64,000 bases of DNA from Clostridiales bacterium DTU070 (lineage in GTDB: Bacteria > Bacillota > Clostridia > DSM-8532), in contig LFSH01000026.1 in the NCBI GenBank assembly GCA_001513105.1, positions 62,001-126,000 of the forward strand, given 5' to 3'. A program made the position numbers and the translations under genes. The notes beneath the pieces were generated by a model that worked only from the letters and a program-made list of their open reading frames with translations, did not search any database and was not told where the DNA came from. Below, piece after piece: positions 35,192 to 54,520 of the stretch. Within the stretch, counting starts at the first letter, position 1, and each line of letters opens with the position of its first letter.

Positions 35192-35269
35192 TAGAAACAA
35201 TAATTTTTGATGACAAACCATTGATTTAAACCAACAGTTTAATAAACCGAACAAACCGTTGAACAAGAA

Positions 35270-35519
35270 TAGTAAGAATAATCACTTGCATTCAGAGAGC
35301 CGTACCTGGTGTGAATCCGGCTGCAAGCTTATTCCGAATGGACTTGTGAGGGAAGCCCGAAATCCGGAAGGAGAGTAGTCGCTTACGGGGGCCCTGCCCG
35401 TTATCAGCTGGGTGCATATGTTGGTATGCAATAATGAGCGGGCGTAGCAATACGCCAATTTGGGTGGCACCGCAGAAGCTGAAGCTTTTGTCCCATTTCA
35501 GGGACAAGAGCTTTTTTTA
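35270..35519 (+). promoter_or_regulatory. T-box riboswitch, probably tRNA-Trp specific
   Basis: The conserved T-box sequence AATTTGGGTGGCACCGC lies at 35457-35473. Downstream is a rho-independent terminator: AGCTTTTGTCCC 35483-35494, GGGACAAGAGCT 35501-35512, then T7. Upstream elements fit a Stem I: AGAGAG near 35294, GGTGTGAA near 35308, and GAATGGAC near 35336 with UGG at 35339-35341 as the likely specifier codon. Uncharged tRNA-Trp would pair with the specifier and the T-box bulge, favouring the antiterminator. The trpE gene 74 bp downstream agrees with a Trp specifier. Confidence 0.92.
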
Positions 35520-44670: not shown

Positions 44671-44860
44671 AACACTTGTTTGCAAAACAGAATAAAAACC
44701 ATAGACAGCAGGAACCATTATGGTGTAACGTATATCATCCTGCCGAGGTGAAAGTATATAAGGGTTTAACAGTACTGCCCTCTGTATGTCTGTGGTTTTC
44801 CATGAATACAGAGGGTTTTATATATGCTCTTATTACCTGGGCAGAAGCAGTAAATAGCAA
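44671..44860 (+). promoter_or_regulatory. L10 leader with attenuator
   Basis: About 190 bases of leader RNA precede rplJ. Near the middle, CAGCAGGAACC and a later ATCCTGCCGAGGTGAAAG can pair, fitting the kind of structure that binds the L10(L12)4 complex. Downstream, CCCTCTGTAT (44778-44787) and ATACAGAGGG (44806-44815), followed by TTTTA, form a terminator hairpin. Excess L10 would favour termination. The position matches ribosomal protein leaders in Firmicutes; the exact fold was not computed. Confidence 0.7.
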
Positions 44861-53019: not shown

Positions 53020-53636
53020 AATGCCACCCTTTTTCAGTTTTTTTAGAAATCAAAAAATCTTATCTGTTTATGATTTCATAAAAAAGAAAAAATTATATCC
53101 GCTCCACCTTTAACTTTTGTGATAAGATTAAGCCAAACTTGTGCACGGGATTTGATGCAAGTTCCTCAAAAGCGCTATATAACCCGATCACTCGATAATA
53201 ACGCGGCAATAAATTACACAACTGTTTCTATTATAATACAAATTAATTTCAAAATGAAGATTAAAATCGAATTTTTACCGCAGGAATGGAAAATATTACA
53301 TAAGACAGATTTCCGCCAGTTCGGAGAAAAAAGGCAGGGCAGACAATCCCGTCCGCTCTATATCTTTTCAGTTCTTAACAGAAAAGCTGAAAAATATGAA
53401 TTGGTCAGGCGTGTTTTTATATTGACATGCTTGATTCCTTGTAGGCGTGCTCAAAACGGTGGAGTAACACCACTTATAGCTATCACGAGTGAGTTTCAGT
53501 TTCTTATAATAGGCAGCCTGAAAACGAGGAGTGAAAATCATAGATAAATTAGCAACGCTGTTTTCAACTCCCTAATAAAATAGAAATGGATAAGCAAATT
53601 ATGCTTTTATTCAAAAGGTTCTGTATCAAATGTTAT
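53020..53636. other. Gene-poor A/T-rich stretch
   Basis: Between the M23 gene start and the small broken gene there is a 142-codon plus-strand frame (53119-53547), but it has no ribosome-binding site, atypical composition and no recognisable motif. A short GTGGAGTAACACCAC hairpin lies near 53459. I assign no gene here. Confidence 0.5.
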
Positions 53637-53891: not shown

Positions 53892-54119
53892 GATCAAATT
53901 CCTTATAGGTAGGCTAAAAACTGTGATTTCTCGCACGGAGCAGTCATAAAAACAAAAAAGTTTCAATTCCTTATAGGTAGGCTAAAAACCTTCTATGTCG
54001 AACGTTTCCTCGTTATTTATCTGGTGTTTCAATTCCTTATAGGTAGGCTAAAAACCCAGGGCAATTTCAATTCGCAAGCTCCAATCACGGTTTCAATTCC
54101 TTATAGGTAGGCTAAAAAC
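53892..54119 (-). CRISPR. Short orphan CRISPR array, four repeats, type I-B-like
   Basis: 30-bp repeats lie at 53892-53921 (degenerate), 53960-53989, 54026-54055 and 54090-54119, with spacers of 38, 36 and 34 bp. The three intact copies are identical: GTTTCAATTCC, TTATAGGTAGG, CTAAAAAC in plus orientation. Read on the minus strand they end ATTGAAAC, the usual 5' handle of type I-B crRNA, so transcription is probably leftward. The leftmost copy has three mismatches near that end, as trailer repeats often do. No cas gene lies within the window, so processing must rely on Cas proteins encoded elsewhere. Confidence 0.95.
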
Positions 54120-54300
54120 CCGTCAAGTACGCATAATAAGCCGCTGCTAAAAAATGCACATTGCAAAGTTTTTCAGTATAAAACCCTCTGATAGTTGAAA
54201 TTGCTGAATTCTTTCTTCCGTCGATCCCCGGGGATTTTTACGCTATCGGACATCGACGGATCGTAATTTCGTAAAAATCCCGGTAATAACTTCCGGCTTA
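54120..54300 (-). promoter_or_regulatory. Putative CRISPR leader
   Basis: The A/T-rich block right of the last repeat would be the leader for leftward transcription. It contains an inverted repeat, CCGTCGAT (54218-54225) with ATCGACGG (54252-54259), enclosing CCCCGGGGATTTTTAC. A second AAAAATCCCGG copy, in inverse sense, is near 54274. An open frame of 69 codons across it is probably fortuitous. Confidence 0.55.
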
Positions 54301-54520
54301 TATCTTCCCTGTTATTAATAATAACATAAATATCCTGTACTGTCACATTCATTTTACGCTTTGCTTCATGAAACATAAACACAGGAACAGATTGTCATGC
54401 TTGGGCTGAACGTGAAGTGACACTGTTGTACCGGAATAAAGGATTTGTATGCATACGCTTAAAATGCTATATTTAGTATAGAGGTTAAACTGGCTTAAGT
54501 GCAGGAAAGGAGATGAGCCT

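What the first reader, a model, noticed from the sequence alone, without database searches (positions are those of the whole stretch)
53892..54300. Orphan mini CRISPR array with readable direction and a leader dyad
Three perfect repeats plus one degenerate repeat, three spacers, and an A/T-rich flank with a CCGTCGAT/ATCGACGG dyad on the side opposite the degenerate repeat all point to leftward transcription. There are no cas genes within 53 kb on the left or nearly 10 kb on the right. A small array like this could be an anti-element relic, a recent seed array, or a satellite fed by Cas proteins elsewhere.
Basis: partly seen in the sequence, partly recalled or inferred. Interest (0 to 1): 0.5.

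Follow-up and report, generated by a model that had tools for sequence, protein, structure and literature searches.

The report
Stranded CRISPR array of broken system
This is a small leftover CRISPR memory array whose own Cas machinery is broken elsewhere in the genome, and the odd mirror-image sequence beside it proves to be a conserved part of CRISPR leaders in related bacteria.

Summary
The array is real: repeats at 53892 (degenerate), 53960, 54026 and 54090, spacers of 38, 36 and 34 nt. It reads leftward. It is an orphan in the window, not in the genome: two more arrays carry its repeat (one mismatch), and C40 shares its leader. The genome has two type I-B systems. A complete Cst-type operon (cas6-8b-7-5-3-4-1-2, contig C35) has another repeat (15 of 30 positions alike). 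The Csh-type operon, whose intact relatives carry this repeat, is wrecked on C45: cas6 and the start of cas8b are deleted, cas3 stops after 48 codons before an IS3-type element, and cas4-cas1-cas2 are gone. The window array is therefore most likely a stranded satellite of a decaying I-B system. An older relic repeat lies 464 bp to its left, and the same gene gap in a congener also holds relic repeats. No spacer target was found. The 'leader dyad' is the best part: it is a 46-nt palindromic leader element found in leaders of intact I-B systems across Clostridia, with compensatory changes also in held-out sequences, usually 95-97 nt before the first repeat. Its role (distal leader site for spacer integration or transcription) is inferred.

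The parts
53892..53921 (-). degenerate terminal (leader-distal) CRISPR repeat
   Evidence: 3 mismatches to the perfect repeat, all at the end away from the leader
53922..53959 (-). spacer 3 (oldest), 38 nt
   Evidence: no target found
53960..53989 (-). CRISPR repeat GTTTTTAGCCTACCTATAAGGAATTGAAAC
53990..54025 (-). spacer 2, 36 nt
   Evidence: no target found
54026..54055 (-). CRISPR repeat
54056..54089 (-). spacer 1 (leader-proximal), 34 nt
   Evidence: no target found
54090..54119 (-). first (leader-proximal) CRISPR repeat
54120..54262 (-). leader; 78% identical over 143 nt to the leader of the C40 array; in most relatives similarity ends at the outer edge of the dyad element
   Evidence: model R1, 64.3 bits; compensatory changes in build set and held-out set
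54318..54346 (-). possible promoter upstream of the element (GTGACA, 17 nt, TATTAT)
   Evidence: 2% of 300 shuffles score as high, uncorrected; not tested experimentally
53428..53457 (-). relic CRISPR repeat, 9 mismatches
   Evidence: falls opposite a relic repeat of congener G025 in the alignment

Best explanation
The locus is a stranded satellite array of a decaying type I-B (Csh-type) CRISPR-Cas system. It was once filled by that system's own Cas4-Cas1-Cas2 at the leader end and read leftward into crRNAs for its own Cas6 and Cascade. In this genome that operon is broken, so the array most likely no longer gains spacers and is no longer processed into working guides; the intact Cst-type I-B system uses another repeat. 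The dyad is a conserved, palindromic leader-distal element that most likely acted as a DNA site for positioning spacer integration or activating the array. Shown: array, leader homology, state of both operons, conservation and covariation of the element. Inferred: loss of function and the role of the element.
For: Same repeat at one mismatch at C40 (5 copies plus a degenerate one) and at the joined C45/C35 ends; leader shared with C40. C45 holds a cas6 fragment (68 aa aligned, of 242), cas8b lacking its start, full-length cas7 (Csh2) and cas5 (Cas5h), cas3 ending after 48 aligned residues, an IS3-family transposase, then a 3-repeat array without the leader element. One Cas1, one Cas6 and one Cas3 over cut-off in the genome, all in the Cst-type operon. 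Close relatives of the C45 operon with unbroken genes where seen (L079, Cas7 79%; L080, Cas7 72%, contig cut inside cas8b) carry near-identical repeats and the same leader element. Element: double-sided changes in 29 cells against 14.3 in shuffles, 0/500; held-out set 12 against 5.0, 0/500; 15 of 16 places found in 33 genomes lie beside CRISPR repeats.
Against: Three of the four window repeats are perfect, so decay is not far advanced. Cas7, Cas5 and most of Cas8b remain open, so loss may be recent or partial. A Cst-type Cas6 could in principle cut this repeat; the two repeats agree at 15 of 30 positions, mostly in GGAATnnAAA near the 3' end. In the complete congener G026, arrays with this repeat type and leader reach 22, 19 and 15 copies although the genome's only Cas1 is Cst-type and it has no Csh-type Cas7, which could mean supply in trans. 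Type III effectors (Cas10) were not searched for. The genome is a 107-contig draft.
Confidence: 0.75

Rival explanations
1. Live satellite served in trans: the Cst-type Cas4-Cas1-Cas2 and Cas6 of the same cell recognise the shared leader element and the similar repeat end, and keep feeding and processing the Csh-type arrays.
For: A weaker form of the element lies directly behind cas2 in the C35 Cst-type leader (23.7 bits) and between cas2 and array in those of G026 (24.0) and G024 (23.7), and at a detached Cst-repeat array of G026 (34.2 bits). In G026, 4 spacer pairs between 74 Csh-type and 66 Cst-type spacers share targets at E below 1e-5 (none in the reversed control), two of them with the same boundaries. 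In-trans adaptation between types is proven in Flavobacterium (PMC8092290, passages).
Against: Cas6 of the two types is barely alike (27% over 60 residues). In G026 the four shared Cst spacers are numbers 40, 44, 55 and 57 of 62 from the leader, as if the other arrays stopped growing early. In the window only three spacers exist. A genome paper on a likely close relative of G026 reports three cas clusters (PMC3593316, passages), so G026 may hold another cluster that I did not find.
Confidence: 0.17
2. Anti-cas or anti-element guard: the orphan array keeps spacers against a rival element or against cas genes, as the I-F orphan arrays of E. coli do.
For: The array persists although its operon is broken.
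Against: None of the 10 spacers of the three orphan arrays matches any held cas operon or other held locus beyond chance; none of the 3 window spacers matches phages, plasmids or viral contigs, and no convincing target appeared in 32 family genomes.
Confidence: 0.04
3. Recent seed array formed by off-target integration next to a chance repeat-like site.
For: Only three spacers.
Against: It carries a full leader with the conserved element, a degenerate terminal repeat and an older relic repeat nearby, and congener G025 has relic repeats in the same gap.
Confidence: 0.02
4. About the dyad alone: it is only an mRNA 3' hairpin or terminator of cas2 that travels with arrays.
For: In three cas-adjacent loci checked it abuts the cas2 stop codon (L079, L080, C35).
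Against: It is kept at arrays with no cas2 upstream (window, C40, G026), keeps its distance to the first repeat, is not followed by a T run in the window, C40 or L079, and its loop is conserved.
Confidence: 0.15

Closest known systems
Type I-B (Csh1/Csh2, Hmari-like) CRISPR arrays of Clostridia and Thermoanaerobacter (e.g. Thermoanaerobacter wiegelii, L083)
   Same: identical 30-nt repeat GTTTTTAGCCTACCTATAAGGAATTGAAAC, spacers of about 36 nt, same leader element
   Different: here no cas genes adjoin, 3 spacers instead of more than 80, and the cognate operon is broken
[quoted passage not shown]
   Same: small array without local cas genes; degeneration is one proposed origin
   Different: here the wreck of the cognate operon is identified in the same genome
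E. coli I-F orphan arrays with anti-cas spacers (as described in PMC8616872, passages read)
   Same: array outlives its cas genes
   Different: no spacer matches cas genes here
Leader-distal motif of the Sulfolobus islandicus I-A leader, bound by Csa3a (PMC9456107, passages read)
   Same: a distal leader motif at nearly the same place: -143 to -94 there, -142 to -97 here
   Different: here a palindrome with compensatory changes in bacterial I-B leaders; the binding factor is unknown and no sequence relation was tested

Membership tests
Type I-B (Csh-type) CRISPR array | direct repeats of about 30 nt ending ATTGAAAC, separated by unique spacers of about 35 nt | tested here: met
   identical repeat in T. 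wiegelii beside a Csh-type operon
Type I-B (Csh-type) CRISPR array | leader shared with arrays beside Csh-type cas operons | tested here: met
   leader element at 64.3 bits here, 65.0 and 67.3 bits in L079 and L083
[quoted passage not shown]
   cas6 and cas3 truncated, cas8b lacks its start, cas4-1-2 absent
[quoted passage not shown]
   needs small-RNA sequencing
Anti-cas orphan array (E. coli I-F kind) | spacers match cas genes of the cognate type | tested here: not met
   no match of 10 spacers to held cas operons
Viral mini-array | lies on a phage, prophage or other mobile element | tested here: inconclusive
   flanking genes are an M23 peptidase, an amidohydrolase, an EF-G-like protein and FeoB, which does not look like a prophage; the C40-type repeat occurs at the edge of one viral contig, L095, not examined further
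CRISPR leader-distal motif (S. islandicus I-A kind) | conserved motif about 95-145 nt upstream of the first repeat | tested here: met
   95-97 nt from model end to repeat in 16 of 23 Csh-type leaders with two or more repeats, 120-142 in the other 7
CRISPR leader-distal motif (S. islandicus I-A kind) | bound by a regulator that modulates Cas1 integration | not testable with these tools
   needs binding and adaptation assays

The most novel reading that the evidence does not exclude
The palindromic 46-nt leader element is a shared docking site that lets one adaptation module serve arrays of two different I-B types, so that arrays outlive their own cas genes as satellites of the surviving system.
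Probability: 0.17. Interest if true: 0.7.

Novelty: new member of a known kind. Interest (0 to 1): 0.42.

Why it matters
The array itself is an ordinary relic, but it led to two useful things. First, a clear case of how CRISPR systems decay: the cas operon is eroded by deletions and an insertion element while dispersed arrays with good leaders remain. Second, a compact, conserved palindromic element in I-B leaders of Clostridia, with compensatory changes and a usually fixed distance to the first repeat. If it directs spacer integration, it gives a concrete site to mutate in bacteria whose leader factors are, as far as I know, not settled, and a marker for telling leaders, array direction and orphan arrays apart.

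Tried and rejected
Spacer targets: the 3 window spacers against phages (only 17-nt chance matches or E of about 1), plasmids (none), viral contigs with every sixth base free (none) and 32 family genomes (repeats and short chance matches only); all 10 orphan-array spacers against held loci (only themselves or chance). Arrays of G026 (the 63-repeat and the 15-repeat one) and of C40 against phages: none. Two shared G026 targets in viral contigs: none.

RNA or DNA element: the palindrome covaries, which fits either. A promoter scan put the better promoter-like site upstream of the element in the window, C40, G005:C97 and G026:2322866 but between element and repeat in L084, L086, L091 and L094; overall the scan inside the leader was not significant (median p 0.45, 4 of 23 below 0.1), so no firm statement is made. 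Helical phasing of the distances was considered and dropped as too few classes.

Rfam strand as direction evidence was rejected: the model hits the + strand here, but it also hits the strand opposite to the cas genes in L083 and L079.

Literature: searches listed no paper that I recognised as describing this element; passages of PMC4022347 and PMC10328091 on clostridial and acetogen leaders do not describe it either. The obvious leader surveys are not held (the latter by a DOI from memory; 86 and 87 for two further papers), so I do not claim it is unpublished.

Full report
What is there. The four repeats, three spacers and the dyad are at the stated places. On the minus strand the repeat is GTTTTTAGCCTACCTATAAGGAATTGAAAC. 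The order is leader on the right, three perfect repeats, degenerate repeat on the left. Direction is supported by homology: the 143 nt next to the first repeat are 78% identical to the same flank of a second array on contig C40, and leaders of arrays that directly follow cas2 in relatives have the same element on the same side.

Not an orphan in the genome. The window is C7:62001-126000 of a 107-contig, 2.89-Mb draft. The repeat, with one mismatch, recurs on C40 (five copies plus one with four mismatches) and at the end of C45 and start of C35, which overlap in sequence and so are one locus; the C35 end shows one repeat fewer.

Two I-B systems. C35 holds a complete operon: cas6, cas8b (Cst1), cas7 (Cst2/DevR), cas5, cas3, cas4, cas1, cas2, followed by an array with the repeat CATAGAATCTAACCAGTGTGGAATGTAAAT, of which 10 copies are seen before the contig ends. 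It agrees with the window repeat at 15 of 30 positions; at least 14 occurs in 1.7% of shuffles. C45 holds the remains of a Csh-type operon. Against the intact operon of L079 (JAAYMA010000079.1, a Clostridiaceae MAG; Cas7 79% identical), about 690 bp of cas6 and cas8b are replaced by 75 bp, cas7 and cas5 are full length, cas3 aligns for 48 residues only and is followed by an IS3-family transposase, and no cas4, cas1 or cas2 of this type remains in the stretches searched. The array behind it shows no leader element. Searches of the whole genome find one Cas1, one Cas6 at E up to 1, one Cas3 over cut-off, and one Csh-type Cas7, the C45 one. Hence the window array's own system cannot be complete in this draft.

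History of the site. The array sits between an M23 peptidase gene and an amidohydrolase gene, in ordinary chromosomal surroundings. A relic repeat (9 mismatches) lies at 53428-53457; in the first 53 kb of the window no position on either strand has fewer than 12 mismatches. In congener G025 the same gap holds degraded repeats and a leader-like remnant; in congener G026 the gap is shorter and no repeat was found there. The site has thus held arrays since before the split from G025, or gained them twice.

The congeners. All four genomes of the genus have exactly one Cas1. Those of G000, G025 and G026 lie in closely related Cst-type operons; G024's lies in a more distant one of the same general type. 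Csh-type Cas7 (family PF05107) is found only in the window's genome among the four, and in 12 of 32 genomes of the family. G026, one contig, has arrays of the window's repeat family at six places, the longest with 22, 19 and 15 repeats, and no cas gene of either reference set within about 9 kb of those examined. Of its 74 Csh-type and 66 Cst-type spacers, four pairs share sequence at E below 1e-5 (two further pairs at 6e-4 and 0.01 are counted as chance); in the reversed control the best was 0.003. The four Cst spacers are numbers 40, 44, 55 and 57 of 62 from the leader, which hints that the dispersed arrays stopped growing earlier; this is a small, after-the-fact observation. Caution: G026 resembles Clostridium stercorarium in size and in having a 63-repeat array (my inference), and its genome paper reports 10 CRISPR loci and three cas clusters, two with cas8a1 (PMC3593316, passages). 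I found only one cluster, so another may serve those arrays.

The dyad is a conserved leader element. From 20 elements (alignment A1), 14 pairs were set; double-sided changes occur in 29 cells against 14.3 in shuffles (0/500), and in at most 7 when partners are slid; the count of pairs with such changes (7) is not above the shuffles (6.2) in this set. A model built from A1 found 16 distinct places at E up to 0.001 in 8 of 33 genomes of the order (21 rows, 5 being the other strand of the same place). 15 of the 16 have at least one CRISPR repeat within about 135 nt downstream (two of these only single or degenerate repeats); the exception, G017:C4, has 147 nt of contig left and no repeat. Ten of the 16 were not in A1. 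A second alignment of these ten plus three weak Cst-type hits (A2) gives 12 double-sided cells against 5.0 (0/500) and 7 pairs with such changes against 3.4 (1/500); as A2 was collected with the model, it leans towards the structure. Invariant in A1 are G5-T6-C7, A9, T17, A23-A26 and G40-A41-C42 of the window element, so the loop is conserved too. From the model's end to the first repeat the distance is 95-97 nt in 16 of 23 Csh-type leaders with at least two repeats and 120-142 nt in 7 (relic, single-repeat and contig-end cases were left out of this count). In most relatives similarity to the window leader ends at the element's outer edge (54257-54262; one reaches 54278), so it marks the leader's far end. 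In three cas-adjacent loci checked it abuts the cas2 stop (L079, L080 and C35). Weaker forms stand in Cst-type leaders (23.7, 24.0, 23.7 and 34.2 bits).

How it probably works. Inference: an element that keeps its distance to the integration site, whether or not cas2 precedes it, is most simply a DNA site used when new spacers are inserted, or an activator site. A leader-distal motif at -143 to -94, bound by Csa3a and needed for efficient adaptation, is known in the I-A leader of S. islandicus (PMC9456107, passages); the element here lies at -142 to -97. That is a likeness in position and perhaps function, not membership. An RNA hairpin role is not excluded: the window strand folds at -21.3 kcal/mol (z -2.8) and a promoter-like site lies upstream of it.

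Verdict. The array is an ordinary relic satellite of a wrecked I-B system. The leader element deserves follow-up; whether it is already published I could not settle, because the main leader surveys are not in the library.

Noticed in passing
window 35250-35498 (+) and 44681-44831 (+): T-box leader and ribosomal protein L10 leader, both over Rfam gathering scores.
   Followed up: no
window 54231-54280: A second inverted repeat, GGGATTTTTACG with CGTAAAAATCCC, shares one arm with the inside of the leader element, so two alternative hairpins are possible here; the C40 copy lacks the outer arm (read).
   Followed up: partly
L095 1-90 (IMGVR_UViG_3300033999_000343): A viral contig begins with two copies of the C40-type repeat (the first cut by the contig end) around one spacer; phage mini-array or misbinned host end.
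   Followed up: no
L135 (G024:C113): G024 carries a more distant Cst-like operon: Cas6 33% and Cas7 28% identical to the C35 proteins, Cas1 62%.
   Followed up: no
L122:9383-9731 (G026): A small detached Cst-repeat array with its own strong copy of the leader element (34.2 bits), so detached arrays exist for both I-B types.
   Followed up: partly
L140 (G009:C55): Another CRISPR system with repeat GTCTCTCCCTATGTAGGGAGAGTGGATTGAAAT, distant Cas7, Cas3, Cas1 and Cas2, and a complex double array.
   Followed up: no
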